In this document: positions 528-21,523 of the stretch, in pieces | Numbering within the stretch: position 1 is the first letter of the stretch | Layout: every line of letters starts with the position of its first letter | Assembly (NCBI GenBank): GCA_001029295.1 | Contig: LDXJ01000061.1 | Span: 1-64,000, forward strand | DNA length: 64,000 nucleotides | Origin: Peptococcaceae bacterium CEB3 | GTDB lineage: Bacteria; Bacillota; Desulfitobacteriia; Desulfitobacteriales; Desulfitobacteriaceae | Direction of reading: 5' to 3' | Made by a program: the position numbers and the translations under genes | The notes under the pieces: generated by a model | Seen by the model: only the letters and a program-made list of their open reading frames with translations | Databases searched by the model: none | What the model was told of the DNA's origin: nothing

Positions 528-1805
528 TTACTTTTTGACCGAAGGGTTTACTGAACATTTACATACTTTGTAATCAACTGGCCCACGACCATTGTTGACT
601 TCACGATTTACGTCCATTTCACTAGCATACCAAACAAGCCTATACATAATTTGCAAATCGCTTTCTCGCTTTATTGGTTTGCCATCAAGATAAAATATCT
701 TGTATCCGTCTTGGTCTTCGATAACATTTTTAAGATACCCCACTCTCTTTCGCGCTTCTTCTAAAGAATCAGGAATAACTTTATAGAAAATTGTACTACC
801 ACGCAGTAGTGAAACAAGTTCCTGTAATTGAACATTGAAAAGCTGCTGTACTTCCTGAACCATCTGCTTGCTCACTGATGTTGCTTCCTGCTCGTTATCC
901 TCTTTGTACTTCAAATAGTAATCAATAAGTTCGGGATGATTCCGGATGAGCGATACTGCAGCATATTCCTTTTCGGTTTTGGACATCTTTTTCTTCTTTT
1001 TAGACAAGATTGATCTAAAATAATTGTCTAGTTCGAAGCGCAATGCTGTATCTCCAATGGAAGGAGCAATGCTCTGCAAATTGTCTATCATATCGCTTCG
1101 ATTAATAAAAGTATCATCTCTTGTAAGCATGGATTTAGGAGTAAGTAAAACGTAATCATCGTTAAAGCATGGTAATGTATATGCCTTCGGGCTCCAACTC
1201 ATCGTATTGTAATTGAATTCTACTTTGGGAACAGAAAATGTTTTGCAATGTTCAGGCTCTAAGTATGTTTTTGCAAAGGCTTCTGTGTATTCTAGAAGAA
1301 ACTTCTTAGCGAAATTAGTGGCAAAGTCGCTTATTTTATCCCGACCGACATTAGGACTAACAAGGCATAACTTTTCCATATGAGGGCTTTTCGGTACAGT
1401 TTCTTTGCCGAAATCTTCAAAGATCGTATTGAGTCCCAAATGAAGGTTTTTGGCAAAGTCAGCGCCTAACCCCCGTCCGGAATTTCCGTCAAGACTAAAC
1501 CCAAGCCATGTTTGCTTTACTTCGGAGAACAAATACCACGATTTCATCATACCTTGGGACAATATCGGATGCAGCTCAGCTTGTTCCTGTAAAAATAAAA
1601 GGTATTTTATTATGTCGTCATGGATTTGACAGAACTGTCCATTATCGCTGTTAAACAGTAAAAAGGGATCGATAAACAAGGGGAGATCATTAATCAATGA
1701 AATATTAACAGCCCCGAACTCTTCGATTATTTCCTCATCTACATCAAAAAAGTCTGAGAAATATAATTTTACTTCATCCAGTTTTATCGCCTCTTTTATC
1801 AGCAT
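528..1805 (-). CDS. Nuclease-like protein truncated just after a PD-(D/E)XK-like motif
   Basis: This 425-residue protein has no family I can name. Its last 40 residues contain LVWYASEMDVNREVNNGRGP followed by VDY, which resembles the first half of a PD-(D/E)XK nuclease core, where a GRGPVD-type motif supplies the metal-binding Asp. In such proteins an E-x-K strand follows. Here the frame ends 12 residues after VDY with an unrelated-looking tail (KCSVNPSVKK), so the catalytic E-x-K is missing. The gene overlaps the preceding HEPN-like gene by 7 bases, so the two are translationally coupled. Its 3' end abuts the terminator of the DUF4338 gene, which suggests a deletion or insertion boundary there. 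The nuclease assignment is inference from one motif. Confidence 0.5.
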   Translation of the reverse strand: MLIKEAIKLDEVKLYFSDFFDVDEEIIEEFGAVNISLINDLPLFIDPFLLFNSDNGQFCQIHDDIIKYLLFLQEQAELHPILSQGMMKSWYLFSEVKQTWLGFSLDGNSGRGLGADFAKNLHLGLNTIFEDFGKETVPKSPHMEKLCLVSPNVGRDKISDFATNFAKKFLLEYTEAFAKTYLEPEHCKTFSVPKVEFNYNTMSWSPKAYTLPCFNDDYVLLTPKSMLTRDDTFINRSDMIDNLQSIAPSIGDTALRFELDNYFRSILSKKKKKMSKTEKEYAAVSLIRNHPELIDYYLKYKEDNEQEATSVSKQMVQEVQQLFNVQLQELVSLLRGSTIFYKVIPDSLEEARKRVGYLKNVIEDQDGYKIFYLDGKPIKRESDLQIMYRLVWYASEMDVNREVNNGRGPVDYKVCKCSVNPSVKK

Positions 1806-2582: not shown

Positions 2583-3326
2583 CTAAATCCTCCCTAAGCT
2601 GATATCGTAATACATTAACAGCTTATCGTCCTCTTGGATGACACTTTCCGGCAACCGGTCCGCAGTTTCTACGATCAGTTTATAGTTCTTATCAGCCCAA
2701 AGCTTCGAAAAGCCAACCCTAACTGCTTCTGTACGAAATAGTTTGAGCTTGCCTTTTGTAGCCAAATAACCTTCAAACTCTTTAAGTAGCTTCTTTTCCC
2801 GAAGTTTAGTAACATCCGCAGACTTTGTAACATCAGGTATATACCACTTGCCATTATTATCTTGAAGAAAGTTGTCCTCAAGTAAAACAGAAAGCTCAGG
2901 AATTAGTTCAAACTTGTCAATGGTCTTGATTTCCTGCATGAACTTAGGTTGAATTTCTGCATAAGTCTGAGGCTTTTCAAGTTGCTGGTAAAGCCAAGCA
3001 ATAGCCGATTTCTCGTTAGTCACAAAAAACTCAAACTGTACAAGCTCCACATCATTTATGATACGGGCAGTATCGTATTCATTAACTTGATCTGCAAGGA
3101 AATACATGCCATCACGTTTCATAAATCTCTCATCTAAACCTTTATAGAAATCACTTGCATCAATAGGGACTGTAAAACCATTCATAATGTGATAAGCAAT
3201 CATTCGATCATATAACAAAAAGGCCTGGCGCTCAGCAATTACCTCAATCTTATTATTCGGCCGGAATCTTTCTTTCCCTTCCCGAACACAGTATATCAGA
3301 CCCGCCGGACAATTTGTTGCACACAA
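2583..3326 (-). pseudogene. C-terminal fragment of a large adenine-specific DNA methylase
   Basis: About 247 residues resemble the C-terminal third of large N6-adenine DNA methylases (over 800 residues) found in phage-defence loci. Recognisable stretches are FLLYDRMIAYHI, VPIDASDFYKGL, ERFMKRDGMYFLADQV, FFVTNEKSAIAWL, KPQTYAEIQPKFMQEI and the closing RLPESVIQEDDKLLMYYD. The catalytic N-terminal part (NPP/Y and AdoMet motifs) is absent. The frame begins inside a sequence of about 50 bp (3261-3314) that occurs again at 4051-4100, on the far side of a long repeat, so the gene seems to have been cut there. It heads an operon with the HEPN-like gene. It cannot be an active methylase as it stands. 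Confidence 0.65.
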
Positions 3327-3348
3327 GTGAGTTGCCTCAATGATTCAT

Positions 3349-4045
3349 TTCAAAGATCAAAAGAGTGCATTGGCGGCTACATTATAAACGCCATTCGTAC
3401 GTTCCGTCCACCAGCCAGGCATGCGGGTTTTCACCCACTGGCTCCTCGATGCTTCCTCGACATTCTCTTCCATATTCCTGCAAGTATCCCAGGAAAATTT
3501 GCACCTTCGACAGGACCTTTCCACCATGAGCCTGGTCCCTCGTAAGCCACGATCGGGTCCGGTGCGGCCCTCTTCTTTAATCATATAACACATCTCGCAG
3601 ACAAATCATTGAGACCGGCTTCATTTCTTCTCGGGCATTCGTTTGAGCGCCGCCCTTCCCCCCAGCCAGGTCACGTCGTGGGAGATGCAAAACGGCCACA
3701 AGCCGCCCTTTCTTTGAGCGACCGCGTGTTTGCCAATGCCGCCATCATCCCTGAGCCAGGAGACCCGCTAACCTCAGTATATCCCTTACGCGCCGGGTTT
3801 GGGGAGATTGAGGCACGGCTCAGCCTAACCATCGGAACGGTCCGGTGCTCGCCAACGGTCTATCGCTCCACACACAACGCTCCCCACGGTAGAAGTTCCA
3901 CCATCCAGCGACCCCACCCCCAGCAAATTTCTCGCACCGGGCTCTCGGTACCGCCTTCCGGCTAGGCTTCATCAAGGCGAATTCTCGAACTTACCAAGGC
4001 GCAAGCGGTGGGGTGATTTACCTCCGTGTGCCCCCAGATATGACA
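3349..4045. repeat. Long intergenic repeat family 1, copy A (most complete)
   Basis: About 700 bp without a convincing gene. The segment matches 18110-18734, 21090-21447, 16079-16375 and 5300-5405 in the same orientation, copies A and B together spanning the whole unit. Shared landmarks include CAAAGATCAAAAGAG, ACGTTCCGTCCACCAGCC, TTTGAGCGCCGCCCTTCC, GAGACCCGCTAACCTCAG and CAAGGCGCAAGCGGTGGG. No terminal inverted repeats or transposase were found. It could be a decayed insertion sequence, a decayed intron or a non-autonomous element. Confidence 0.75.
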
Positions 4046-4050
4046 CCATG

Positions 4051-4100
4051 CCGGAATCTTTCCCTTCCCGAACACAGTATATCACACCCACCGGACAATT
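4051..4100 (-). repeat. Second copy of a 50-bp methylase-derived segment
   Basis: This segment is nearly identical to 3261-3314 (same strand, a 4-base difference in length and three substitutions). The first copy encodes the start of the methylase fragment (VREGKERFRP region). Family-1 repeat copy A lies exactly between the two copies. The arrangement looks like a long target duplication or a recombination scar; no methylase coding continues beyond this copy. Confidence 0.7.
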
Positions 4101-4179
4101 CATTCATTCGTCGTGCTTCCTGCATTTGAAAGATTCATGACCCCGAAAAGAATACGGAGGCCCCTCTCATCTGCCCACT

Positions 4180-4500
4180 CACCACTACCACAAGTTACCT
4201 CAACCGAGGTTACTGAGTTACACGGGGGTGCACATTGGAGCATGTTTTTCCGCGCATCTCGCCCAATTTTATCCATAAACATGTTCCCCCGTGCGAGGAA
4301 CATGTTCGCACAGGCCGCGAGGTTATGCGAAAAAGGCACAAAATCGTCCCATATCTTTCCTTAAAACCACATCTCGCGGTCGTCACAGGAACATCTTGTG
4401 TGATGAAACACCCCTTAAAAACCCTGAGACCCGCTCTATGAGCGGGTCTCAGCTGTTCTTATTTACGAAACATGTTACCATTTCTACGTGCGTGGAGTGT
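4180..4500 (-). repeat. Repeat family 2, copy 1: decayed 3' gene end, terminator and palindrome-rich tail
   Basis: About 300 bp match 22290-22610. Reading on the minus strand, the element begins with a coding 3' end (ARRNGNMFRK then stop, 4459-4491), continues through a strong hairpin terminator, and ends with about 240 bp holding AACATGTTC palindromes at the AAACATGTTCC and GGAACATGTTCG sites. In this copy the small gene is interrupted upstream by an in-frame TGA, so only its end survives. Conservation of a non-coding tail this long is unexplained. Confidence 0.65.
4424..4452 (-). terminator. Terminator hairpin in repeat family 2, copy 1
   Basis: A perfect 13-bp stem (CTGAGACCCGCTC / GAGCGGGTCTCAG) with a 3-base loop is followed on the minus strand by GGTTTTTAAG. 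It stands just after the stop codon of the decayed small gene end. Confidence 0.75.
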
Positions 4501-5553: not shown

Positions 5554-5759
5554 AAGCGTAAACCCGTCCCCACCTGTAAGACCTGTGGGAACACCCATTT
5601 CTCACCATGTGCAGAACACTGTAAAATTCGCGGTAGTGAGGTCAGTGTCGCCAACACTAAAGGGATACTATAACGCGGTTACTATAAAGCCCCCATATGT
5701 ATGGGCGCATGCTGACTCCCTTATGTGGGCATAACACCCTTAGAAGATGGAGGGTAAAT

Positions 5760-6371
5760 ATGCCACGATACTCTTATCGAAAATTTAACGCAGCCAGAAA
5801 ACGCTACGGTTTAAGGTTTAGAAGCAAACAAGGCCACCAATTCCTTATAGTCGTCGGCGGCCTTGTGGCACTGGACTATACCATCAATCATCCCTACGTG
5901 ATACTTGCTCTGGGCAGCTTTGTCCTTTTCGTCTCCTCTTTCCGGAAGTGGTCAACCCTGCAAGCCATTAGAAAATCCGGCATTGAGCAAATTGACCGTA
6001 TGTCGGGTACCGAATTTGAAAAGCGCTTGGCCGTGTTGTTTTGCGATTTAGGTTATAGCGTAAAACTCACGCCCAACAATGATTTCGGCGCAGATGTAGT
6101 GGTCGAGAATTACAGGGGCGGACGCACAGTCGTCCAAGCTAAAAGGTATAGCAAGCCAGTGGGCATTAAAGCGATTCAGGAAGTGGTTGGTTCCATGGGC
6201 TATTATGAGGCAATAAACGCACTTGTCATCACCAATAAGAGTTTTACCCCACAGGCCGAAAAGTTGGCCACAAAAAACGGCGTCGAATTATGGGACCGCC
6301 AACAGCTAATCCACAAAATAAACTCTGCTGCACGAGGCATGGCTCGACTCATAAAATTGCGCACTCCGTGA
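5760..6371 (+). CDS. Mrr-like restriction endonuclease with N-terminal membrane segments
   Basis: The 203-residue protein begins with a basic stretch and two hydrophobic segments (about residues 25-65), then an Mrr_cat domain. Visible PD-(D/E)XK elements are MSGTEFEKRLAVLF, the Asp of NNDFGADVVV and the Q-x-K of VVQAKRYSKPVGIKAIQEV, which replaces E-x-K as is usual in Mrr proteins. The closing ALVITNKSFTPQAEKLA and ELWD match the family. The ATG at 5760 is chosen because GATGGAGGG lies 5-8 bases before it; an upstream in-frame start has no such site. The gene stands alone. Membrane-linked Mrr-type nucleases are thought to cut foreign DNA; that role is inferred. Confidence 0.85.
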   Translation: MPRYSYRKFNAARKRYGLRFRSKQGHQFLIVVGGLVALDYTINHPYVILALGSFVLFVSSFRKWSTLQAIRKSGIEQIDRMSGTEFEKRLAVLFCDLGYSVKLTPNNDFGADVVVENYRGGRTVVQAKRYSKPVGIKAIQEVVGSMGYYEAINALVITNKSFTPQAEKLATKNGVELWDRQQLIHKINSAARGMARLIKLRTP

Positions 6372-6754: not shown

Positions 6755-7945
6755 CTATGATTCGGGTATCTTAAGGTTAGTGTAAAAAAGATGATACCAT
6801 TCAAAACGCAAAGCTAACCAATTGTGATTAAACATTTTAGTCTGCATGTCTTGTTCAAACGAGCACTGAGCCTCATTATTAATTATAAAGTAATGCTTTT
6901 GGAGGTTCGTATAGTGCCCTAACTCTTCTGCCGATAAGCCATTCTCGGTGAAACCTACAATTCTTCTTCGATCTGGATGTAAAATCGGTTTATCCTTAAA
7001 TTTGCAACAAGTGATTGCGTCAATGGATCTCCGAACAGCATTTATCTCAGGAATTAGCCATTGTTCAAATAAATATACTACTTCTGCACTGGAAAAGAGT
7101 TCAGAAGCATCATTCCCTTTTGTTAAATTCTGTGGGTCGAAAATTTCTCCAGGCAGATTCTCATTCATTTTACTGATATCATTAATAATTTGTGTTCTTT
7201 CTTCAACTTGATCTTCTAAAACGACTTCGCCGATGTCATTCTTATGAAACTCAAAATGATAAAAATGAGAACTTTGCTGTGAAACCATACAACCATCTAC
7301 TTCTTCTCCCCAAATTACAAAACTAGATTTGGTTAATGTAGATATAGCCATACAAGGTGATATTCCTAATTTCGAAAAGGATGAAGAACCGCAAAGTTTG
7401 AGAGTCTCAAGCATTTCATTTCTCATACTAGTTCCAACTTTGTAAAGATCGTTACCGTGAATATTAATATCCTTTTCCACTCTTGTCTTAATGCGATTTT
7501 CAATATTTGGTATACTTGCACCTGAACCGATAATTACGCATGTTCCGATTGGTATTGGTTCAACAATACATCCTAGACCTGGTGACACATCTATTCTAAA
7601 CTGTACATTTTGGTTGTTCTCACCGTCTACCAAAAATCCTATTGCCCCTGTCTTGCCATAACTATCAGAGGGGCATTTTTCAGCCTCTATTTGAATTGCT
7701 TCATGAAATGGACCATCTGCTTTTAGTACATTGTCAAGATTAATACTAGATACTGTTCTCTCAATAAAAGGTAATAGTAACTTCCATAAATATATATCGC
7801 CTGCTAGTAACAGGCCCATCCTATTATCAAAAGATTGGAACTTGAATGACGCATCTAACTGTCTGTCGGGGTTTTTTATCGTCAGTCTGAAATCATTCAG
7901 ATACACCGCCCTGTCGTCTAAGCGATAAGTTGCTACCAATGTCAT
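6755..7945 (-). CDS. Proteasome-like Ntn-hydrolase domain protein in a defence island
   Basis: The 396-residue protein starts Met-Thr. With Met removed, numbering from that Thr gives T1, D17 and R19 in YLNDFR, a Lys at 34 in the DASFKF stretch, and G48 in LLLAGD. Proteasome beta subunits and HslV use T1, D17, K33 and G47, so the match holds with a one-residue shift. A later SYGKTGAIGFLVDG segment fits a following strand-turn. The last 200 residues are helical and of no known family. An AAGGAAGGGG site precedes the ATG. The closest family could be proteasome/HslV/Anbu-like or another Ntn hydrolase. Peptidase activity is inference; the residue pattern is directly visible. Confidence 0.6.
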   Translation of the reverse strand: MTLVATYRLDDRAVYLNDFRLTIKNPDRQLDASFKFQSFDNRMGLLLAGDIYLWKLLLPFIERTVSSINLDNVLKADGPFHEAIQIEAEKCPSDSYGKTGAIGFLVDGENNQNVQFRIDVSPGLGCIVEPIPIGTCVIIGSGASIPNIENRIKTRVEKDINIHGNDLYKVGTSMRNEMLETLKLCGSSSFSKLGISPCMAISTLTKSSFVIWGEEVDGCMVSQQSSHFYHFEFHKNDIGEVVLEDQVEERTQIINDISKMNENLPGEIFDPQNLTKGNDASELFSSAEVVYLFEQWLIPEINAVRRSIDAITCCKFKDKPILHPDRRRIVGFTENGLSAEELGHYTNLQKHYFIINNEAQCSFEQDMQTKMFNHNWLALRFEWYHLFYTNLKIPES

Positions 7946-8417
7946 TTAGTATAAGTCCCCTTCCTTTGCAATTTGGGCGAACGCTATTTTTTATAAAACA
8001 AGATTTACCCACATCCCTCAACTTCCACAGTCCTACTTTACCAAGCCGGTACACTCTTCCCCGATCTTAGAATGAGCGGGCGACCAATTCACGCTAACCT
8101 CGAAAAATTCCATTTAGCGTTTCCTTACCTATGGCTCACTTTTATTGTAGCACCCATAGCATTTCCCATATATTCATCTCAGCCCTGATGTGACTGAATA
8201 GCTCTGGATTAACCTGTCGGTTTAACGGCAGATCCTCTGCCTGAATTGAGCGGACTACGCATAGCCCTGGAATGGTTATTTTATATTTTAAAGTCCAGCT
8301 CACAGGGGGGCGGAGAGTTTTTTATTTAACATAGTGTGCAGACGAGCAACCTTTTCGAAGGTCTAAAGAAACTTTTAGTGTCAATTTGTGGGCTTATGCA
8401 GTGGAATCATGAGGTAG
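7946..8417. other. Leader/intergenic region of the Ntn-hydrolase-like gene
   Basis: No gene was recognised. A stretch near 8066-8101 (CTTCCCCGATCTTAGAATGA then GCGGGCGACCA) resembles one near 9532-9566 in front of the PIN-domain gene (CTTCCCCATCTTCGAATGAT then TCGGCGACCA). Both genes are on the minus strand, so this may be a shared upstream element. Confidence 0.4.
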
Positions 8418-9518
8418 TTACTCTAAGACACCACAGACCACCCCAAGTATCCACTTGTGGGCATCGACCTGTGAAAAGGTCGATTCGGATCTCAATATTC
8501 TTGGTACGTACTTCGCAAAACCCTGGTTGGTGGTAACATATCCTTCATTCTTTACCCTCTGTGCAATTTGGTCTACGCTCAATGGTACAGCACTCTTGCT
8601 TAAAACTGCGAAAATATAATCCTTTGCGGTTCGCGGGTCGGTTGTAGGATTGCTCCTGTGGTACTTTTGAAGTTTTTCCATACCCTCTAGTTTCAAGGTC
8701 TTCCCAGTTTCTAGATAGTCGAAAATTGGTAAGAGTATGGGGACTAACCCATCCCGAACCTCCTTGATACGCATAGGCAGTGCTGTTAGGCAAATACCTT
8801 TTATAAATTCGCGGCTTTTTGGCAACATAAATGTAGCAATAATAATTACCACACCCAAGAGTCTGACCATGTTTGGCAGGTTTTTTATGAGATGGTACAG
8901 AGCCCTAATCGCATCATAAAATGCGCTAATAGCTACTAAACCAGTAAGGGTTATAACAGTCTCGCAGGCTGAAAAGGTATACATGATACTTTGACCTGCG
9001 TGATAACCTCTTAGGTCTAATGAGAGGTCAACATAGTTTTCGTTTCCCATTCCCAAAGCAAGTAGATCTTTATCTTGAGTCAGAAACCATTCATGCGACA
9101 TAAACGAAACCAGACGTAAGAAGGGTATGTCCTTCGGGTCTCTTAGATCGTTTTCCAGAGGAGCTGTTACACGAGGTTTTAAGTCGGGTACCAGCCTTAT
9201 TAATCGAGCGTACGTGTGATTCCATTTTTCACGAACTTCATTGACAGTGGTGCGTGATTCCCTTGCCATTTTAGAAAAATGGTCTTCAATCTCATGAATA
9301 CTTTCAGCCGGGAAAAAGATCACAACACGCTTAGCTTCTGCCAGCTTAAACAGGGTCGTTAGTTTTCCGGTTAGGAGCATACGGCGCAGATCGCCGAGCA
9401 GAATGTTGGAGTCGACAACGACTGCAGTCACAGCATATGGGATAAGTTCATGAAAAATGGGCAAGGAGTTTAGGAGTTTATCGAAATCCAGCTCCTGGTT
9501 GCTTTCGTTTAACATCAT
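8418..9518 (-). CDS. PIN-domain protein with membrane segments and C-terminal winged-helix domain
   Basis: Three parts are visible. Residues 30-180 form a PIN-like domain: VVVDSNILL (D36, N38), an acidic HEIEDH, DLRDPKDIPFL and FLTQDKDLL supply the acidic residues of the RNase site. Two hydrophobic segments follow (VITLTGLVAISAF, LLGVVIIIATFML). The last 80 residues (SVDQIAQRVKNEGYVTTNQG to the end) look like a winged-helix domain. The start is the ATG at 9518 because GTGAGGAG lies 7 bases before it; the longer frame to 9578 has no site. It lies upstream of the Ntn-hydrolase-like gene, same strand, 472 bp away. PIN RNase activity is inference. Confidence 0.65.
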   Translation of the reverse strand: MMLNESNQELDFDKLLNSLPIFHELIPYAVTAVVVDSNILLGDLRRMLLTGKLTTLFKLAEAKRVVIFFPAESIHEIEDHFSKMARESRTTVNEVREKWNHTYARLIRLVPDLKPRVTAPLENDLRDPKDIPFLRLVSFMSHEWFLTQDKDLLALGMGNENYVDLSLDLRGYHAGQSIMYTFSACETVITLTGLVAISAFYDAIRALYHLIKNLPNMVRLLGVVIIIATFMLPKSREFIKGICLTALPMRIKEVRDGLVPILLPIFDYLETGKTLKLEGMEKLQKYHRSNPTTDPRTAKDYIFAVLSKSAVPLSVDQIAQRVKNEGYVTTNQGFAKYVPRILRSESTFSQVDAHKWILGVVCGVLE

Positions 9519-9628
9519 AATATATCTCCTCACCCTTCCCCATCTTCGAATGATTCGGCGACCATTTATGAATGTCATACTTCGCTTTTTATCATTCCAA
9601 CTAACAAGGCTCAGTTCTTAAGTCAAGT

Positions 9629-12600
9629 TTAGCCCACTATCTTTACCGCATTCTCCTTTATGCTCGTTACTAGCTCCACCATCCGTTTCTGTTTTGAGCC
9701 ATCAAACAGCTTAATAAAGCTCTGAGGTTTATCAAAAGGCGGCCGCGTGAGTTCGGACACGTTTTCTATATAACCGTTCTGAACGACATAGTCGATGACT
9801 TTCTTAACAAATACAATTTGCGCTTGACTGAGCGACTGATCATTGATAAAATCAGAGAACGCTACAACCGCTGCTGCATATTCCATCTTGGCAATTTTAC
9901 GCACAAGCAAACCGAATGGCGTATCCTGGAACTCGCGCTTATAATCCTCTACGGTGCCAAGTTCCCCCGTGAAGACATGCTCCAGGCTTTCGTAGTCGAA
10001 CGCAGTAAGCGGCATATTGTTACGAAGCTTATAAATGGCGAGATGATCGCGGTGTTTCTCAATATAGCGGTTTACCTTGAGCCTATAATCCTCAAAGTCG
10101 TAGGCAGGACCTATTCCTTGTCCCTCCCTGACTTCGAGAATTTCATCGGCCAAGTTGGTGTAGATCGGATTTCTTCCACCTTCGTCAATAATGAACTTTA
10201 TAAGGCTGCGCAGCTCCACGCGCACTCTCTCAAAGTTCAAAATATCGGAACCCTGCCAAAACTCGTCCGTGCCAATCATATTGATTAGCTCCAATTTTTC
10301 TCTTATCTGCGGAATTGTAGCACGCTGCGAAAGACTGGCGCACACGCCTATAAGTTGCTTTTTCCCCTTTTTGAACTGTGCCAGCCCTTCAATCTGAGAG
10401 AGCATAAGGCCGTACATAAAATTGTCAAATCGTTTGGCAAATTCGTCCGTGTCATCCATGTAGACAATCGGCGCTAGGAAAGCGATGAGATTGTGTTTAT
10501 CCAAAGCCGTGAGGTAGATAAACGCCCTCGCCCGTTTATACTTTTCAATGTATTGCAACTGGAGCTTGACAGATACCAGCTCGATATTCAGCTCGTTGAT
10601 CTGCGGTAATACCGCTTCAATCAGCCCGGTCCGGATGGACTGATAGGACTCACCGGTATAGGCTGACGTCTGGAGGTGACATATCAAGCGAACCCGCTTC
10701 GCAAAGATGGCTTCCGTTATGCTCTGGGCTTCACTGTTTTGTAAGCCCTCTTTGTTGGCACGGAAGAATTCAAAATTGCCAAGATAGTCAAAGATAACAA
10801 AATGGGTCTTATCCTGTCCTTCTCCGAACAGATTTTTGCAAAGCCGGGTACCCCGCCCGATCATCTGCCAGAATTTTATTTTGGAGCGCACACGCTTAAA
10901 GAACACCAGATTAACAATCTCCGGGACATCAATGCCGGTATCTAGCATGTCGACGGATACGGCAATATGGGGTTCCTTTTCTGCGATCTTAAAATCCGTA
11001 ATGAGCGTTTGTGCATAGCTGTCATCACAAACCACCCGCTTGGCAAAGTTGCCGTGGTACTGCGGATACAGCTTATCAAAGCGATCAAGGATGTACTGAG
11101 CGTGTTTTTTGTTTTGGGCGAAGATAATGGTTTTACCCAGACGATCCCCCCCGGCAACCCGGATCCCTTTTGTCATGAGATCTTCTAACACTGTGTCAAC
11201 CGTAGCCTGGTTGAAGATGAATGTGTTTATTTCAGGGGGGGCAATAAAATCAGGCATCTCGCCGTCTTCGTCGGTGAAATCTTCTTCGTAGCGTTCCTTG
11301 TCTTCTGCAGAAAGGTCATCGTAGGTGATACCTTGCTCCAAGAACCTCGTTCTGACCTCCATATTATGGTAGCGAACTAAGACGTGGTCAATGTCCGCAG
11401 CGGTTTCATAATCGTAGGCATACGTGGGCACTCCGCTTTCCATCTCGAAAAATCGGTAGGTATTATGATCAACTTCGATCCGGGGGGTGGCCGTCAAGCC
11501 GACCAGCAGGCCATCGAAGTATTCAAAAATCGCGCCATATTTTTTAAAGATGCTTCTGTGAGCTTCGTCCACCACGATCAGGTCAAAATGGGCTGGGGTA
11601 AATAGAGGCCGACCGTCCTCGCTCTTGACCGTGTCGATGGCGTTAAGCATCGTCGGATAGGTTGAAAAGACAATGCGAGCATTTTTCTCATCCTTGTTGC
11701 TGAGCAGGTTACACAGGGACATATCCGGCAAAAAGTTCTTAAAGTCGTCTTTGGCTTGCTTTACCAAAGCCGTTCTGTCGGCTAAAAATAAGATGTTCGT
11801 AATGTATCCTCCACGGGACAATACATCCGTTAAACTGGAGGCCGTCCTTGTTTTGCCTGAGCCGGTCGCCATCACGAGCAAGGATCTTCTGTGCCCGGTT
11901 GTGATATTCTCACAGACCGCACGGATGGCTTCTTTCTGGTAGTAACGATCAGTGATTTTATCGTCAATCGGAACTTCATCCAAAGCTTTGCGTTCGCTGC
12001 GGCGATTCATCAGCTTTTGTAAGTCGTCTTTGGAAAAAATACCGCTTACCTTGCGTTGTGGAGAGGTAACGTCATCCCATAGATTCGTTTCAAAGCCATT
12101 TGTGGTGAACATTATGGGCCGCCTGCCGGTCATTTTCTCCAAACAGTCGGCATAGAGCTTAGCCTGCTGGGTGCCAATCTTGGGGTCTTTGGACGTGCGC
12201 TTGGCTTCGATGATGGCAAGGGGAAGACCGTCTTTGCCGTACAGTACATAATCGGCATAGCCTTTCCCCTCGGGATTCGGCATCCCATAAAGTGGTACCT
12301 CTTCCTTAACATCGTCACCGAATACCCAACCCAAAAGTTTCAAGTCCACATCAATATATTTCTTCCGGGTGAGAAATTCTGAAATATCCCCTGGGGTGAA
12401 ATGGCGTTCTTCCTTATGCTGCTCTTTTCCAGAGGTAAACTGTTCACTCATGGCCGCGATTTTAGCACGAAGAGCCTCAATTTCGGAATCCTTTTGCTCG
12501 ATCAGACTGTCTTTTTCCTTGAGGATCACCTTTTCAGAAGGGATATTTCCTTCATCAAAACGTCGTTCTATGTAATTTGCACCATAGCAATAGTCAACCC

Positions 12601-12961
12601 ATTGTACGAATTCAAATAAGGAAGAAAGGGACAAAACCGCATCACTGCGGTTGATGGCTTTTCCGGTATGTACCGCAAGGTTGCCCAGATTGATGATATA
12701 GGGCAGCTTGTTCCAGGTCTGGTTTTCCATGGCGAATTTGAAAGAAGGTTCGTGAATTAATGCCTGCAAATTGTTCTTATAGGGCACAGTGATGGTATTA
12801 TCAGCTGAATATACCCATTTCACGGCGAGCTCGAAGGCCTTGCGACTACCCACTGCTGCCATTGCGGGAGAGGTGGCAAGCACACGCTCCGCTTCGATGC
12901 AAGCTGCGGAAAATAAAGCATATTCAGTTTGACCCTGTAGGAAATCAAAGTTTGCAAGCAT
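9629..12961 (-). CDS. hsdR: Type I restriction enzyme, R subunit
   Basis: The 1110-residue motor/endonuclease subunit of a type I restriction-modification system. In order: an N-terminal DUF4145-like region, a coiled linker (about 150-190), a PD-(D/E)XK nuclease core (YADYVLYGKDGLPLAIIEAK), a superfamily 2 helicase with Walker A MATGSGKTRT, VVDEAHRS, GLTATPR and the late motif IGRGTRLC, and an EcoEI-type C-terminal domain. All catalytic motifs are present. The ATG at 12961 is preferred over the GTG nine bases earlier because GAGG lies 8 bases before it. The gene starts about 14 bases after the hsdS stop. Confidence 0.93.
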   Translation of the reverse strand: MLANFDFLQGQTEYALFSAACIEAERVLATSPAMAAVGSRKAFELAVKWVYSADNTITVPYKNNLQALIHEPSFKFAMENQTWNKLPYIINLGNLAVHTGKAINRSDAVLSLSSLFEFVQWVDYCYGANYIERRFDEGNIPSEKVILKEKDSLIEQKDSEIEALRAKIAAMSEQFTSGKEQHKEERHFTPGDISEFLTRKKYIDVDLKLLGWVFGDDVKEEVPLYGMPNPEGKGYADYVLYGKDGLPLAIIEAKRTSKDPKIGTQQAKLYADCLEKMTGRRPIMFTTNGFETNLWDDVTSPQRKVSGIFSKDDLQKLMNRRSERKALDEVPIDDKITDRYYQKEAIRAVCENITTGHRRSLLVMATGSGKTRTASSLTDVLSRGGYITNILFLADRTALVKQAKDDFKNFLPDMSLCNLLSNKDEKNARIVFSTYPTMLNAIDTVKSEDGRPLFTPAHFDLIVVDEAHRSIFKKYGAIFEYFDGLLVGLTATPRIEVDHNTYRFFEMESGVPTYAYDYETAADIDHVLVRYHNMEVRTRFLEQGITYDDLSAEDKERYEEDFTDEDGEMPDFIAPPEINTFIFNQATVDTVLEDLMTKGIRVAGGDRLGKTIIFAQNKKHAQYILDRFDKLYPQYHGNFAKRVVCDDSYAQTLITDFKIAEKEPHIAVSVDMLDTGIDVPEIVNLVFFKRVRSKIKFWQMIGRGTRLCKNLFGEGQDKTHFVIFDYLGNFEFFRANKEGLQNSEAQSITEAIFAKRVRLICHLQTSAYTGESYQSIRTGLIEAVLPQINELNIELVSVKLQLQYIEKYKRARAFIYLTALDKHNLIAFLAPIVYMDDTDEFAKRFDNFMYGLMLSQIEGLAQFKKGKKQLIGVCASLSQRATIPQIREKLELINMIGTDEFWQGSDILNFERVRVELRSLIKFIIDEGGRNPIYTNLADEILEVREGQGIGPAYDFEDYRLKVNRYIEKHRDHLAIYKLRNNMPLTAFDYESLEHVFTGELGTVEDYKREFQDTPFGLLVRKIAKMEYAAAVVAFSDFINDQSLSQAQIVFVKKVIDYVVQNGYIENVSELTRPPFDKPQSFIKLFDGSKQKRMVELVTSIKENAVKIVG

Positions 12962-12974
12962 TAATTTCACCTCA

Positions 12975-14138
12975 CTAGCATTCGAAATACTCGCTCATTA
13001 GGCTGTCAAACAAGTATTGTGTTTCGTCGATTGCCTTTTTTACTAGGGCTTTTTGTTCTTCGATTTTGGTGACGATTTCGGCGAATTTGGTTTGAAGGTT
13101 AATTGGAGGGACCGGAATAATCAAATTCTTAATCAAGCTGAATTCAACATTATCTGCGGTAACAGCTCTAACATTTTTCAAAATGTTGTTTTGCATTAAC
13201 ATAAAAAAATATAACAGATACTCTGCTTCAACTTTTTCACTAGTAATAAAGGCCTTCATATCTTGGTTAATAGCAATATCAACTGTATTGATTGCAAGCG
13301 GTAGTGATCTTTTTAATATGCCACTTCTAATAACCATTAAAATAGAGCCAGAAGGTATTAGGTTAGCTGAACTATTTTTAACTGCATTTTCGTTTATGTG
13401 GTCAATGCTGTCCTTGATACAAATAGTCTTCATATCTTTAGGTGTAACCCAAGGAATGGCACCGATAAAATACTCACTGTGACTTTTTGACGGAGTGCCA
13501 CCGCCCATTATCGTAGAACACACCCTATCAACTGTGCTAACTACCCACCCCTTCTCATTCGTCACAGGATCGCCGAACATATCGTAAAAGATGGACTTGA
13601 TAAGGTTGTCCAGCTCTGCAAGCAGTTGTTTGCGCATGGCAAGAAGGTCTGCGGCGGTGTCTAAGTTTTTGGCAATTTGTTTTTGGGTTTCGAGGGGTGG
13701 GAGAGGAATTTGTATTTTTTCCACGATAGCCTTAGAAATTTCTTTAAATGTAGCACCTCTTCCAAGTGAATTTAAAAACTCTGTTTTCCCTTTCAAAAAC
13801 CAAAACAAATATTTATTGAATATCTTTTCCGAACAAATTAAATTTTTAAATCCCTGATTGCAGTACATTTCCGCTCCTGCAATGGCTACCTTTCCAATCG
13901 GAGCTCTCGATGAAAGCAAAACCGTTCCTATTGGTAGTGACCTCAAACTTGTATCTTTGATTGCTTTTTCTGTAATTTTACGTTCTGTATTGTTGATAAC
14001 GAAAATTGTATCCTTTAGTTCAGCCGGTGTAACCCAATTATACTCACCGTTCCAATATTCATCTACTCCTGTTTTGGGAGTAGAACCGACAACAACAGTT
14101 GTAACATCACTTAACGTTGTTACACTCCACTTACTCAC
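12975..14138 (-). CDS. hsdS: Type I restriction-modification specificity subunit
   Basis: The 387-residue DNA-recognition subunit. It has two target-recognition domains (residues 1-150 and 200-350), each ending in a long helix after the motif pattern PLPPLETQKQIAKNLD (first repeat) and PVPPINLQTKFAEIV (second repeat). Each domain opens with an S-x-x-P-x-T-G/S-like motif (GSTPKTGVDEYWNG; GGTPSKSHSEYFIG). Both halves look intact. It overlaps hsdM by 8 bases. The recognition sequence cannot be predicted from what is visible. Confidence 0.92.
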   Translation of the reverse strand: MSKWSVTTLSDVTTVVVGSTPKTGVDEYWNGEYNWVTPAELKDTIFVINNTERKITEKAIKDTSLRSLPIGTVLLSSRAPIGKVAIAGAEMYCNQGFKNLICSEKIFNKYLFWFLKGKTEFLNSLGRGATFKEISKAIVEKIQIPLPPLETQKQIAKNLDTAADLLAMRKQLLAELDNLIKSIFYDMFGDPVTNEKGWVVSTVDRVCSTIMGGGTPSKSHSEYFIGAIPWVTPKDMKTICIKDSIDHINENAVKNSSANLIPSGSILMVIRSGILKRSLPLAINTVDIAINQDMKAFITSEKVEAEYLLYFFMLMQNNILKNVRAVTADNVEFSLIKNLIIPVPPINLQTKFAEIVTKIEEQKALVKKAIDETQYLFDSLMSEYFEC

Positions 14139-15648
14139 CGATAAGCCCCCTCAATTCCTCCATTTTTGAAGAAATATCCAGGCTCAGCTCGTCAAGGCGT
14201 GTCATAATCTCCATGGGGGAATCGTATTCCACCTTTTCATAAACAACCTCTTTATAACGGTTGATAGATAAATCATAGTCGTTAGCTCCAATGGCCGACT
14301 TATCTACGAAGAAGCTCTGTTCAGTAGGCTTGCGGTTAGCTTCACCATAAAGGTTATGGAAGCGGGCAAGGATATCCGGAATATCATTGGCCTCAATGGA
14401 AGAACGTTTATCGTCCAATGAAAAGCCATCGGCTTTCATATCGTAAAACCAAACCTTATCAGTACCGCCTGCACCTGTTTTTGTAAATACAAGAACAGCA
14501 GTGCTAACCCCTGCGTAGGGTTTAAACACACCGCTGGGCATGGAGATAACCGCCTGAAGTTGATGGTTTTCTACCAACTCTTTGCGCAAGGCTTTGTGGG
14601 CCTTGGTTGAGCCAAACAAAACGCCATCTGGTACAATACAAGAACAACGACCACCCTTGCGAAGCATCCTCAAAAAGAGTGCAACAAACAAAAGCTCCGT
14701 CTTTTTTGTGTCGCAGACTACCTTCAAGTTATCGTTAATACTCTCGGCGTCCACTGTACCGGTAAACGGTGGATTGGCAAGGACAATATCATAAGCGGAA
14801 GAAATACTGTTTTGCTTGGAAACGCTGTCCACATAGTTAATACTGGGCTGGGTAATTGAATGGAGCATGAGATTCATGGCGGAAATACGCAACATCGTTC
14901 TGTCGGTGTCAAAACCTGTGAACATATCACCCTCAAAATGCCCCCACTGTTCGGTTGTCATCTCAGACTCATAGTTTTCTCTGATATATTCAGCGGATGA
15001 AACGAGGAAACCCGCTGTACCACAGGCCGGATCACAAATCTTATCTTTTGGCGTGGGTGCAAGCAACCGCACCATCATATCACGAATATGCTTCGGTGTC
15101 CGAAACTGCCCGTTCTGCCCTGCTGTAGCCAGTTTGCCCAGCATATATTCATAAAGGTCGCCTTGCATATCAATATCTTTAATGTCGTGTTCATATAGCT
15201 CATCTAATCCTGTAATTATCTTTTGCAATACCTGTGGGGTTGGAATTAAGAACATCGCGTCCTGCATATAGCGAGAAAAAGCAGATGCATTTTCTCCGTT
15301 CATAGCCTTGATAAAGGGGAATACCTTTGTGCCGACTATATCATAAATCTCGCGGGAGTCTTTTGTCTTAAAATTGCTCCAACGCATAGCCAGTCCCCCC
15401 TCGTCCTGAGGGAAGATCTTGGACGGTGCTTCACCGGTTAGGGCTTCGATGCTCTCAATTTCTAGTTCCTTTTCATCTAATGAACGGATAAACATCAGAT
15501 AGGTAAGTTGTTCTATAACGGTTATAGGGTTAGAAATACCGCCAGCCCAGATATCCGACCATATTCTATCAACCTTGTTGCGAATTTCTCCTGTCAGCAC
15601 TGCTTTTGCTCCTATCGCTATTTTAGTACTCGGGGTAGGATTTTGCAT
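14131..15648 (-). CDS. hsdM: Type I restriction-modification methyltransferase subunit
   Basis: The 505-residue N6-adenine methyltransferase. An N-terminal HsdM_N helical domain (KVDRIWSDIWAGGISNPITV) is followed by the AdoMet site (PTPKDKICDPACGTAGFLVS), the catalytic NPPF (VLANPPFTGT) and the late motif GGRCSCIVPDGVLFGS. The start is taken at 15648: a TAAGG site lies 6 bases upstream and an extended -10 promoter 31 bases upstream, while a longer frame to 15774 would begin before the promoter. It is the first gene of the hsdM-hsdS-hsdR operon. Confidence 0.93.
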   Translation of the reverse strand: MQNPTPSTKIAIGAKAVLTGEIRNKVDRIWSDIWAGGISNPITVIEQLTYLMFIRSLDEKELEIESIEALTGEAPSKIFPQDEGGLAMRWSNFKTKDSREIYDIVGTKVFPFIKAMNGENASAFSRYMQDAMFLIPTPQVLQKIITGLDELYEHDIKDIDMQGDLYEYMLGKLATAGQNGQFRTPKHIRDMMVRLLAPTPKDKICDPACGTAGFLVSSAEYIRENYESEMTTEQWGHFEGDMFTGFDTDRTMLRISAMNLMLHSITQPSINYVDSVSKQNSISSAYDIVLANPPFTGTVDAESINDNLKVVCDTKKTELLFVALFLRMLRKGGRCSCIVPDGVLFGSTKAHKALRKELVENHQLQAVISMPSGVFKPYAGVSTAVLVFTKTGAGGTDKVWFYDMKADGFSLDDKRSSIEANDIPDILARFHNLYGEANRKPTEQSFFVDKSAIGANDYDLSINRYKEVVYEKVEYDSPMEIMTRLDELSLDISSKMEELRGLIGE

Positions 15649-15678
15649 TTTGAACCTTACGCTTACCCCCTGACTTTG

Positions 15679-15687
15679 ATTATACCA
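15679..15687 (-). promoter_or_regulatory. Extended -10 promoter of the hsd operon
   Basis: On the minus strand TGGTATAAT fits the TGnTATAAT extended -10 consensus; no good -35 box is seen, as is common for this class. A start site about 7 bases downstream would leave a short leader before the hsdM ribosome binding site. Confidence 0.6.
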
Positions 15688-16078
15688 TTTCGTCTGGACA
15701 AATTGTTGAGGAGCGAGTGAAACGGCAGAAAGCGCTGGTTCTGTACGAATTGCCAACATGCACACCACTCCCATCCACCACGGGCCGAGTCAAGTAGGGA
15801 GGTTTCACCCCTACCTGCTCACGGTGTTCGAGGTGCCTTCCCTCCCACGCCCCCAACGCTCCCGGCGGGTAATTTACCCTCGATGATGTTGTCCGAAATA
15901 GGCCAACAAAGCAACCTTCGGTTGAGTTCGAGATGCCCTTTTTCCAAAGCGCGCAACCGGAACCCAAATGCCACCATCGACAGCGCGCTCCACGTCGGGG
16001 TTGGCCCCATATGTAGCATTTCTACGCGTTGAGGCATATTCCTTCCAGTGTGGCAAATAAAAGCAGCCCCGCCTCCTT
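15688..16078. other. Intergenic stretch without recognised gene
   Basis: No gene of a known family or strong hairpin was recognised. Short frames here lack ribosome binding sites. The right end runs into family-1 repeat copy D. Confidence 0.45.
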
Positions 16079-16375
16079 TGTGCTAATGCCGCCATCGTCC
16101 CTGAGTTGGGAGACCCGCTACCCTCAGTATATCCCTCACGTGCCGGGTTGGGGAGATTGGGGCACGGCTCAGCCTAACCATCGGAGCGGTCCGATGCTCG
16201 CCAACGGTCTATCGCTCCACACACAACGCTCCGCACGGTAGAAGTTCCACCATCCGGCGGCCCGTGCAAATTTTTCGCACCGGGCTCTTCGGTTCTTGAC
16301 TTCTGGCTAGGCTTTATCGAGGCGGATTCTTGAACTTAGCAAGGCGCAACCGGTGGGATGATTGGCTATCGGGGA
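16079..16375. repeat. Family 1 repeat, copy D (3' half)
   Basis: It matches the second half of copy A, from GCTAATGCCGCCATC to GCGCAACCGGTGGGATGATT. In its left part (CCCGCTACCCTCAG, ACGTGCCGGGTTGGGG) it is closer to copy C than to A or B, so at least two sublineages exist in the window. Confidence 0.7.
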
Positions 16376-16424
16376 TATAAGCCGGAATATAGCCTGTATT
16401 GGTTTAGCCTGTTCGGCCCAACTT

Positions 16425-18008: not shown

Positions 18009-18194
18009 TCGCGCTATCTAACGGCAAATTTGGACCCGAAAGTGACGGGACGCATCACCGCCAGTGTCGGTGCTTTTACCACAGGCTTGACATGGGGTCA
18101 GGAGACGAAAGATAAACGACTCATGGGCTTTCGGAAAACCCCCAACCAGATCGCTATTTATCTTTCAAAGATCAAAAGAGCGGCTACATTATAA
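18009..18194 (+). pseudogene. Possible decayed reading-frame end joined to family-1 repeat
   Basis: A stretch open for 62 codons ends with RLMGFRKTPNQIAIYLSKI just inside repeat copy B; the same end is encoded in copy C (GFWKTPNQIAIYLSKIKRA). It has no start codon with a ribosome binding site. It may be the C-terminus of a lost gene, perhaps of the mobile element itself. Between 17426 and 18009 nothing else was recognised. Confidence 0.3.
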
Positions 18195-18734
18195 ACGCCT
18201 TTCGCACGTTCCGTCCACCAGCCTGGCATGCGGGATTTCACCCATTGGCTCCTCAATGCTTCTTCGACATTCTCTTCCATACTCCTGCAAGTGACCCAGG
18301 AAAATTTGCACCTTCAATAGGACCTTCGCACCACTGTCGATCCGTACCACGGGAGCCCAGTCCCACGCAAGCCGCCGGTTTGTACCGTCGATCGGGTGTG
18401 TCCGAAATACGTTTGCTCGGTGCGGCTCTCTTTTTTGATCATAACACATCTCGCAGACAAATAATTGAGACCGGCTTCATTCCTTCTCGGGCATTCGTTT
18501 GAGCGCCGCCCTTCCCCCCAGCCAGGTCACGTCGTGGGAGATGCAAAACGGCCACAAGCCGCCCTTTCTTTGAGCGACCGCACGTTTGCCAATGCCGCCA
18601 TCATCCCTGAGCCGGGAGACCCGCTAACCTTGGTATATCCCTTACGCGCCGGGTTGGGGAGATTGGGGCTCAGCCTAACCATCGGAACGGTCCAGTACTC
18701 GCCAACGCCCTATCGCTCCACACACCGCGTCAAT
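18110..18734. repeat. Family 1 repeat, copy B
   Basis: It is co-linear with copy A from CAAAGATCAAAAGAG through GCCCTATCGCTCCACACA, with a left extension (ACTCATGGGCTTTCGGAAAA) shared with copy C. Relative to A it contains an extra stretch near 18330-18415. Its right end cuts into the 3' end of the AlbA_2 pseudogene. Confidence 0.75.
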
Positions 18735-18736
18735 TG

Positions 18737-19214
18737 CTAGACTTGGCCTCTGCCTCCGTCCAAAGCTATCAGCAAGTAAATGATGTTCCATCATCATGAA
18801 ACTATCTCCGGATCTCGTAAATTACTGATCAACTTTTAGAAGAGCCCTATGGGGTAGTAAGCTACTCTCTGGCACATATGTAACCGCAAAACCTTTATCT
18901 TCTTCGTCAGGTAACAGTATCAGGTAATTTTCAATACCAAGGTTTAAAGGAATTATTGCGTGGCTTGTCAGACTATTTAAATCTGTAAGGAACCTTTTCA
19001 CGAAAAAAATGGGGATTTCCTCACATGCAGCATCCGGTGAGTCATCATTTTCCTTTCTTGCATTGATTCCCCATATTAATACTCCACCATTAGAGTTAGA
19101 AAAACCCGAAAGAGCCTTTGCATAGTTGCTCTTATCATCATTTTGAACACCTGGTACAGATGGGTCTCTTTTTTGTTTGAAATCTATAAATAAATTTTCC
19201 TCCTGTTTAACCAT
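18737..19214 (-). pseudogene. AlbA_2 (Schlafen-type) domain gene broken by one stop codon
   Basis: The frame starts MVKQEENLFIDFKQKRDPS and contains KALSGFSNSNGGVLIWGIN, the hallmark of the AlbA_2 domain, then VTYVPESSLLPHRALLKVDQ. A TAA at 18822-18824 stops it. In the same frame, directly after the stop, comes FTRSGDSFMMMEHHLLADSF followed by GRR, which is the conserved closing motif of the family (Y-x-x-RSGDSF ... FGRR). The stop stands where Tyr is expected, so a single TAT/TAC to TAA change explains it. The 3' end then runs into repeat copy B. It lies 57 bases after the kinase gene. A sequencing error at this base is possible. Confidence 0.7.
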
Positions 19215-19271
19215 CTCCTGTATACGGAAAAATATTAAGGACGTTGCTCAACAACTAAACCTCCTAAATTG

Positions 19272-20294
19272 TTATAGCGATTCAGTTAGCAATTTATGTA
19301 AGTGCTTTTTCATCTCTTTTTCTGTTAACCTTTCTACTGAATACTTCGTTATCCTCATCAACCTGTCTCGCCCTTTCTTAACCACAATGTTGTATGTTGA
19401 GCCAATTATATTCTTTGAAGCAATAATTTGATACTTGAAATCTAAGTCTACGCCTACCCAAACTTGTTTACGTCCAGTAATTGTAACTGGACTCCAATCT
19501 ATTGGAATTGAAACTTTACCTAATTCGCTTCTCATTGTATGGGCATTGGGGTATCTTGAACTAGGATCGACGCTCAATGCCTTATTAATTATGGCCTTTA
19601 GCTTTTTAGGAACGTCAGGCGAGTATATATCCCTAGGTGGAAACTTTCCTGTTACAATTTCATATGACAACTTACCCCTATTTATAGAACTCAAAAACCC
19701 ATCACCATTTACCATTCGATATAATGTAAGACCTAATGAGTAAATATCAGCTTCGCGAGTATATTCGCCTAATGTAAAAACCTCGGGAGCCTTATGAAAA
19801 GAATATCCAAAGGAAGACTGGTACTTACCATCTTCATCTAATTCCGAGGTTAATCCGAAATCCGATAATTTTGAAACCTTCGAGTCGTCAAGAAGAAGAT
19901 TATTCGGTTTAATATCCCGGTGAATAAAGTTATTATTGTGAATAAATTGGAGCCCATGCAATGCATCTATGGCTATCCTTATTGCTTGTTTTATGGAAAG
20001 CTTTCTTCCGTCCTTCATCAGCTCCGAAACAGCACCGTTCTCAAGAAACTCCATTAAAATGTATAATTTATCATTTCTGACAAAAGCATCATATATTTCA
20101 ACCACATTCCTATGTTGCACCTTATGTTGTACTTTTGCTTCGACAGTTCCTTTGGGGCCTAGTCTTGAAACATTCTCTATAATTTTTACTGCCTCGATTC
20201 GACCTACTACCTTATTATATGCCTTATAGACAGAACCAAAGTAACCGTTACCTCGGTTTCCTAAGTTATCATACTTTTCCGCAATGTCATGCAC
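19272..20294 (-). CDS. Hanks-type Ser/Thr protein kinase
   Basis: The 340-residue protein has all kinase motifs: a Gly loop variant (RGNGYFGSVYKAY), the Lys of EAVKII, HRDIKPNNLL, LSDFGLTSEL, KAPEVF (APE) and a late Arg in PSSRYPNAHTM. It has no membrane segment or PASTA repeats, so it is cytosolic, unlike PrkC. About 85 residues after the kinase domain are of unknown type. The start is a GTG directly after the TAG of the DUF3010-like gene, so the two are translationally coupled. Kinases in this kind of setting can act as defence or stress effectors; its target is unknown. Confidence 0.88.
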   Translation of the reverse strand: MHDIAEKYDNLGNRGNGYFGSVYKAYNKVVGRIEAVKIIENVSRLGPKGTVEAKVQHKVQHRNVVEIYDAFVRNDKLYILMEFLENGAVSELMKDGRKLSIKQAIRIAIDALHGLQFIHNNNFIHRDIKPNNLLLDDSKVSKLSDFGLTSELDEDGKYQSSFGYSFHKAPEVFTLGEYTREADIYSLGLTLYRMVNGDGFLSSINRGKLSYEIVTGKFPPRDIYSPDVPKKLKAIINKALSVDPSSRYPNAHTMRSELGKVSIPIDWSPVTITGRKQVWVGVDLDFKYQIIASKNIIGSTYNIVVKKGRDRLMRITKYSVERLTEKEMKKHLHKLLTESL

Positions 20295-20768
20295 CTACAG
20301 CACCGCCCATGCACATAAAATTGCCTCTTTTACATATTCATCTCTAATCGATAAGCCGAAAGTATTTTCTACATGCTCGATTTGAGCCGCTTTTGCCTTT
20401 TTGGTTAACCCCAAAATAGTTTTTGTTTGGGAGTATTGGAGTTTCCTAACTGGGATATTTTGCTCACAACATAATTCAAGCAATACTCCTTCAACCTCTC
20501 CCCTTTGAGCAACCGAATGAATGAGTATTCTATGCTGGCTATTTTCCTCATCTTTAATACCAACCGCAGTAGGCTGATACTTAAAAATCAGTTGCGAAAA
20601 CTCTCTTCTTAAGTATGATAACTGCTCCGCTCTTGATTCAGCCGTCTTAGGAGGCGTTAGGATAACCTTTACTCTTGCCTCGTCAGTGATTGCAGGATTG
20701 GTTTTCGTTCCCTCTAGAACCGCAACATGAATTTCTTCCTTGGTACATCTAACGCCCAAAGTAGCCAT
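20295..20768 (-). CDS. DUF3010-like protein, RuvC/RNase H-type fold
   Basis: The 157-residue protein begins with ATLGVRCTKEEIHVAVLEG, a first-strand pattern like RuvC/RNase H folds, followed by QPTAVGIKDE, RGEVEGVLLELCCEQNIPV and a C-terminal EAILCAWAVL resembling the last acidic helix. The Asp normally found in the first strand of RuvC nucleases is replaced here (LGVRC), so catalysis is doubtful. The kinase gene begins at the very next base. A GAGAGGA site precedes the ATG. The DUF3010 name is from recall of the pattern; a structural search would settle it. Confidence 0.55.
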   Translation of the reverse strand: MATLGVRCTKEEIHVAVLEGTKTNPAITDEARVKVILTPPKTAESRAEQLSYLRREFSQLIFKYQPTAVGIKDEENSQHRILIHSVAQRGEVEGVLLELCCEQNIPVRKLQYSQTKTILGLTKKAKAAQIEHVENTFGLSIRDEYVKEAILCAWAVL

Positions 20769-21447: not shown

Positions 21448-21523
21448 TTCGCCACGGTAAATGCATCCACCACGGTTGAGTGGCAAGGATTCGGCATGTG
21501 CCTAGGTACGTCTAATAGCGTGT

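What the first reader, a model, noticed from the sequence alone, without database searches (positions are those of the whole stretch)
6755..7945. Proteasome-type Ntn-hydrolase active site in a defence-island protein
Numbered from the Thr after the initiator Met, the protein has T1, D17, R19, K34 and G48, against T1, D17, R19, K33 and G47 in proteasome beta/HslV subunits. The C-terminal 200 residues match nothing I know. A self-maturing threonine hydrolase beside a PIN-type RNase in a restriction island would be a new combination.
Basis: partly seen in the sequence, partly recalled or inferred. Interest (0 to 1): 0.75.

Follow-up and report, generated by a model that had tools for sequence, protein, structure and literature searches.

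The report
Proteasome-like enzyme in defence islands
This gene encodes a distant, uncharacterised cousin of the proteasome's cutting subunit, with the full catalytic set intact, and its few relatives lie on mobile DNA, mostly beside known anti-virus genes, so it may be an unrecognised protein-cutting part of bacterial defence.

Summary
The 396-aa ORF (6755-7945, minus strand) starts M-T and carries T1, D17, R19, T21, K34, G48 and, unnoticed before, a GSG motif where the proteasome has G128-S129-G130. No Pfam, NCBIfam, PADLOC or PDB sequence match exists, but three full relatives (23-37% identity) keep every one of these residues. Profile-profile alignment of the four N-terminal domains against an HslV + proteasome-beta + phage-homologue profile gives probability 92%, E 6e-7, score 50 versus at most 18.7 in 300 column shuffles, with T1 aligned to T1. 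Scored singly, the four proteins rank 1-4 among 74 ORFs. AlphaFold without an alignment failed (pLDDT 31-35), so the fold is inferred.

Corrections: there is no propeptide, so Met aminopeptidase, not self-cleavage, should expose T1. The PIN gene is 472 nt away and was not seen beside relatives. Only about 150 C-terminal residues are unexplained, and they are optional.

Such homologues are a known kind (Fuchs, Alva and Lupas 2021, PMC8665760, including five Firmicute clusters). New here is the context: a type I RM island, a type II RM/Mrr plasmid cluster, a CBASS operon, and a truncated copy between Lamassu and Gabija. Activity and a defence role are inferred, not shown.

The parts
6755..7945 (-). 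proteasome-like threonine-hydrolase homologue gene, 396 aa
   Evidence: ORF; homologues; profile-profile
7271..7945 (-). Ntn-type domain, about residues 1-225 (mature numbering starts at the Thr codon)
   Evidence: hhalign to HslV/proteasome beta/phage homologue, Prob 92.3, E 5.6e-7; the confident part is mature residues 1-143
7940..7942 (-). codon of T1, presumed nucleophile, directly after the initiator Met
   Evidence: invariant in 4/4 full-length members
7886..7894 (-). codons of D17-F18-R19 (with T21 at 7880-7882)
   Evidence: D17, R19 and T21 invariant in 4/4
7841..7843 (-). codon of K34 (K33 of proteasome beta)
   Evidence: invariant in 4/4; aligned to K33 by hhalign
7799..7801 (-). codon of G48 (oxyanion-hole G47 of proteasome beta), in an invariant AG pair
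7520..7528 (-). codons of the GSG motif (mature 139-141), equivalent of G128-S129-G130 of proteasome beta
   Evidence: invariant in 4/4; aligned to GSG of HslV and beta
7358..7366 (-). codons of the GIS motif (mature 193-195), family-specific, near the position of D166-S169-G170 of the proteasome
   Evidence: invariant in 4/4 and in two truncated copies; register to the proteasome uncertain
6758..7210 (-). C-terminal region, residues 246-396, unknown domain, with a conserved FDP motif; absent from the short member L010
   Evidence: no family or PDB match
7957..7966 (-). ribosome-binding site AAGGAAGGGG
   Evidence: read directly
8418..9578 (-). context: PIN-domain protein, 472 nt upstream of the Ntn gene and 50 nt behind hsdR
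   Evidence: PF10130 E 6e-7; ORF
9629..15774 (-). context: type I restriction-modification operon hsdM-hsdS-hsdR
   Evidence: Pfam; PADLOC REase_I E 1.5e-159
5697..6371 (+). context: Mrr-type restriction endonuclease, convergent with the Ntn gene
   Evidence: PF04471 E 7e-29
2583..3326 (-). context: fragment of a PglX/type II methyltransferase-like protein
   Evidence: PADLOC PglXI E 5.5e-85 over a partial match

Best explanation
The gene encodes a highly diverged member of the proteasome-like branch of Ntn hydrolases. Methionine aminopeptidase removes the initiator Met and exposes Thr1, whose hydroxyl is the nucleophile; D17/K34 tune the N-terminal amine and G48 forms the oxyanion hole. It most likely cuts a peptide (or other amide) bond in a protein that is chosen with the help of the optional C-terminal region. 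It is carried as a stand-alone cargo gene of mobile defence islands, without a fixed partner, probably as an accessory or autonomous defence enzyme. Shown here: homology, the intact catalytic set in every full-length relative, absence of a propeptide, and the island contexts. Inferred: fold, Met removal, catalytic activity, substrate, and the role in defence.
For: T1, D17, R19, T21, K34, G48 and GSG are invariant in four full-length proteins, the relatives being 23-37% identical to the window protein. Profile-profile scores rise as members are added: 36.7 (3 sequences vs HslV + beta; 400 shuffles max 24.3), 44.1 (target plus a phage homologue; 200 shuffles max 24.1), 50.2 (4 sequences; Prob 92.3, E 5.6e-7; 300 shuffles max 18.7), colinear from T1 to GSG. 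As single sequences the four rank 1-4 of 74 ORFs. L010 alone matches PF00227 weakly (E 0.14). Contexts: type I RM + PIN + Mrr; type II RM cluster with Mrr 9 nt upstream; CBASS cyclase + 4TM effector; truncated copy between Lamassu and Gabija. M-T start with an in-frame stop directly upstream.
Against: No confident structure: pLDDT 31 and 35. The window protein itself matches no PF00227 model. The D166/S169 equivalents of the proteasome are not evident, and the alignment past residue 143 is weak. The neighbours differ in every locus and the gene is operonic only in L009, so the island context could be passive hitch-hiking. L063 lies in a mobile element without a recognised defence system. Defence enrichment was not quantified against a background.
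Confidence: 0.7

Rival explanations
1. Same fold and catalytic set, but the enzyme is not a protease: it works as an amidase or a specific protein ligase, like connectase, the monomeric archaeal proteasome homologue.
For: Fuchs et al. [quoted passage not shown] The C-terminal extension could fix substrate specificity.
Against: No connectase-type insertion between S3 and S4 is seen: the spacing from K34 to G48 equals that from K33 to G47. Nothing positive points to ligation.
Confidence: 0.2
2. A passenger gene of plasmids and islands with a housekeeping-like or element-maintenance role, not a defence gene.
For: No conserved partner and mostly non-operonic placement; L063 lies in a mobile element with a phage-repressor-type HTH and a SprT-like gene. 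Defence islands collect unrelated cargo.
Against: In four of six loci the gene lies within a few kb of an established defence system.
Confidence: 0.35
3. A functional unit with the neighbouring PIN nuclease.
For: The PIN gene is the next gene upstream on the same strand.
Against: The gap is 472 nt, while the PIN gene is 50 nt behind hsdR and so looks like part of the RM operon. No PIN gene was recognised among the relatives' neighbours that were annotated or scanned.
Confidence: 0.04
4. Chance resemblance: not an Ntn hydrolase.
For: No family-library hit and no confident model.
Against: Conservation in four diverged proteins and profile scores about 20 standard deviations above column shuffles.
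Confidence: 0.05

Closest known systems
Proteasome-like homologues of Fuchs, Alva and Lupas 2021, in particular the Firmicute clusters FC1-FC5
   Same: Firmicute origin, catalytic set T1/D17/K33/G47, no propeptide, extreme divergence; some clusters (FC4, DAH, RPC) also have extra C-terminal domains (PMC8665760)
   Different: Assignment to a cluster could not be tested (their alignments are not held). The authors reported no telling genomic context; here defence loci recur
20S proteasome beta subunit
   Same: T1, D17, R19, T21, K33, G47, GSG colinear
   Different: No propeptide, no alpha subunit seen nearby, D166-x-x-S169-G170 not evident and a GIS motif near there instead, extra C-terminal region
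HslV
   Same: N-terminal Thr, Asp17, Lys, Gly; GSG
   Different: The host has its own separate HslV; HslV has Q19 and ends where the C-terminal region begins; no HslU beside this gene
Phage-borne proteasome-like protein seen in G177 and IMG/VR (L057:7093-7761, L058:3001-3648)
   Same: MTL- start, D17, R19, Lys, AG/SG motif
   Different: 222 aa, over the PF00227 cut-off in G177, next to a ParB-like gene; only weakly alignable to this family directly

Membership tests
Proteasome-like family (sense of Fuchs et al. 2021) | Thr1/Ser1, Asp17, Lys33 catalytic triad and Gly47 oxyanion hole in order and spacing | tested here: met
   T1, D17, K34, G48 invariant in 4/4
Proteasome-like family (sense of Fuchs et al. 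2021) | Profile-level sequence homology to proteasome/HslV | tested here: met
   hhalign Prob 92.3, E 5.6e-7, score 50.2 vs shuffle max 18.7; rank 1-4 of 74 ORFs
Proteasome-like family (sense of Fuchs et al. 2021) | Alpha-beta-beta-alpha Ntn sandwich fold | tested here: inconclusive
   AlphaFold2 without alignment, pLDDT 31 and 35
Pfam PF00227 (Proteasome) | Score above the gathering cut-off | tested here: not met
   No hit for window, L009 or L063; L010 12.2 bits vs cut-off 22.4
HslV | TT N-terminus, GDGQ motif, about 175 aa | tested here: not met
   T1-L2, DFR instead of DGQ, 396 aa
HslV | HslU partner gene beside it | tested here: not met
   No AAA+ unfoldase gene directly beside it in the window, L009 or L010; the host HslV lies elsewhere, on contig C25
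20S proteasome beta subunit | Propeptide removed autocatalytically | tested here: not met
   ATG-ACA start with in-frame TAA directly upstream
Firmicute clusters FC1-FC5 | Clustering with the published FC sequences | not testable with these tools
   Published alignments (Mendeley t48yhff7hs) and the WP_ records are not held
Known anti-phage system protein | Match to a PADLOC model | tested here: not met
   None for window, L010 or L063

The most novel reading that the evidence does not exclude
A previously unrecognised antiphage gene family whose effector is a proteasome-like threonine hydrolase, active without ATPase or ring partner, targeted by its own C-terminal region, and shuffled among RM, CBASS, Lamassu and Gabija islands.
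Probability: 0.25. Interest if true: 0.85.

Novelty: new variant of a known kind. Interest (0 to 1): 0.55.

Why it matters
More than twenty proteasome-like families in prokaryotes have no known function, and the 2021 survey found no telling gene context. A branch that recurs beside defence systems gives a concrete hypothesis that can be tested with one gene and one point mutant (T1A) in a plaque assay. If it holds, the proteasome fold would join caspase-like and other proteases as an immune effector in bacteria.

Tried and rejected
Family libraries gave nothing for the window protein (Pfam, NCBIfam, PADLOC, PHROGs, PDB). Single-sequence and pattern searches of GTDB contigs, viral contigs and phages found no relative; the relatives came from plasmids and profile searches of whole genomes. 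Rejected: 'self-maturing' (no propeptide), PIN partnership (not conserved), an Mrr partner as a rule (operonic in L009 only; in the window convergent and only distantly related). The weak genome hits L002-L008 and L014-L017 were not taken as homologues (E 0.004-0.4 over short stretches).

Full report
What is there. The ORF at 6755-7945 (minus strand) is 396 codons long, starts ATG-ACA and is preceded by an in-frame TAA and a strong ribosome-binding site. Counting from the residue after Met it has T1, D17, R19, T21, K34, G48 and a GSG at 139-141. R19 fits proteasome beta rather than HslV (the host HslV reads GDGQ).

Is it more than chance? No curated library matches the window protein. Relatives are rare: two Priestia plasmids (L009 37%, L010 26%), one full-length copy in a genome of the same phylum (L063, 23%), and two truncated copies (L018 in G437; L064 in G831). 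All four full-length proteins begin M-T and keep D17, R19, T21, the Lys, the AG pair and GSG. A loose pattern of the signature occurs in 4 of 5334 open starts, all in proteasome-like proteins; this set is not independent, since it includes loci fetched as homologues.

Homology to the proteasome. I built a profile from about thirty HslV sequences of the phylum, proteasome subunits (1PMA, 1J2Q, plasmid-borne archaeal and actinobacterial ones) and a phage-borne proteasome-like pair found on the way. hhalign of the N-terminal 245 residues gave score 36.7 with three family members against HslV plus beta (400 column shuffles: mean 12.9, max 24.3), 44.1 with the phage pair added to the target (200 shuffles, max 24.1), and 50.2, Prob 92.3, E 5.6e-7 with four members (300 shuffles: mean 12.2, s.d. 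1.9, max 18.7). The alignment starts at T1-T1 and runs through D17, R19, T21, K34-K33, G48-G47 to GSG, with a single one-residue insertion after T21 in the first 50 residues. As a control on real proteins, each of 74 ORFs of at least 230 aa from the window and the loci was scored alone against the same profile: the four family members rank 1 to 4, although single-sequence scores are low (21.4-24.3) and close to the next protein (21.2). Against HslV alone the first test was weaker, one of 400 shuffles exceeding it.

What could not be shown. AlphaFold2 could be run only without an alignment and gave pLDDT 31 for the whole protein and 35 for the N-terminal part; no fold search was made on such models. 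Their strand-helix order (four strands, helix at 51-64, later helix at 164-186 and strands at 198-213) is compatible with the Ntn order but carries little weight. Past residue 143 the register is unsure: the proteasome's D166-x-x-S169-G170 is not evident; an invariant GIS motif stands near there.

Anatomy. About 225 residues form the Ntn-type domain; the remaining C-terminal part (246-396) has a conserved FDP motif and is shared by the window protein, L009, L063 and the G437 remnant, but L010 and the G831 remnant stop soon after the first domain. So there are long and short forms, and the C-terminal region is optional.

Maturation. Nothing precedes T1 except the initiator Met. By established knowledge Met-Thr ends are trimmed by methionine aminopeptidase, and Fuchs et al. 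[quoted passage not shown] 'Self-maturing' is therefore not supported.

Neighbourhood. In the window: hsdM-hsdS-hsdR with a PIN gene 50 nt behind hsdR, then 472 nt, then the Ntn gene; an Mrr endonuclease gene converges on it; a PglX-like fragment, a candidate defence protein (PDC-M36A), a protein kinase and a Schlafen AlbA_2 fragment lie within 15 kb. L009: BglII-type, HNH, Mrr and Sau3AI-type nuclease genes, the Mrr gene 9 nt upstream of the Ntn gene. L010: CBASS cyclase (E 6e-111) and 4TM effector (E 1e-93), then a 240-aa unknown, then the Ntn gene. L064: LmuA-LmuB, the truncated Ntn copy, then GajA-GajB. L018: remnant near PemK-like, nucleotidyltransferase and Fic genes. L063: mobile element with NERD nuclease, SprT-like protease and HTH, no recognised defence system. 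No partner is constant, and no PIN gene was recognised near any relative. The association with defence is suggestive (four of six loci beside established systems) but was not measured against a background.

Relation to the known. Fuchs, Alva and Lupas (2021) described 22 new proteasome-like families in prokaryotes, five of them in Firmicutes (FC1-FC5), marked by T1/S1, D17, K33, G47 and the fold; they found no telling gene contexts. This protein is of that kind. Whether it belongs to one of their clusters could not be tested, because neither their alignments nor the WP_ records are held. I filed it as a new variant because of the optional C-terminal region and the recurrent defence context; if it proves to be FC1 or another cluster, 'new member' would be the right word. 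Searches of the paper library found no report that links a proteasome-like protein to phage defence.

Mechanism, with steps marked. Exposed Thr1 as nucleophile (inferred from conservation); Met removal by aminopeptidase (inferred); cleavage of a protein substrate chosen with help of the C-terminal region (inferred, weakest step); stand-alone cargo of mobile defence islands (shown for six loci as position only). The most useful test is T1A against wild type in a plaque assay and with Thr-directed probes.

Noticed in passing
window 3309-4376, 16081-16391, 18116-18725, 21090-22500: Dispersed long non-coding repeats (pieces of 59-242 nt at up to 97% identity) lie between the genes of the island; a 219-nt piece has 9 matches in the genome, 5 of them on other contigs. 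They could be a mobile or recombination element around the island.
   Followed up: partly
L057:7093-7761 and L058:3001-3648: A second, phage-borne proteasome-like protein (222 aa, MTLI...GDSRTS) beside a ParB-like gene, in G177 and one IMG/VR contig.
   Followed up: partly
L010:7120-7842: A 240-aa unknown protein lies between the CBASS effector and the Ntn gene; only a weak PHROG match (E 2e-4).
   Followed up: no
window 18822-20768: A Schlafen AlbA_2 fragment, a protein kinase (best PADLOC matches mad6 and PD-T4-6) and a RuvC-like ORF sit together, a possible second defence group.
   Followed up: no
window 8418-9578: The PIN protein seems to combine a PIN domain, a hydrophobic middle and a weak winged-helix/HARE-HTH match at the C-terminus, and follows hsdR by 50 nt.
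   Followed up: no
window 528-1805: A 425-aa protein matches the candidate defence family PDC-M36A (E 1e-18) without any Pfam match.
   Followed up: no
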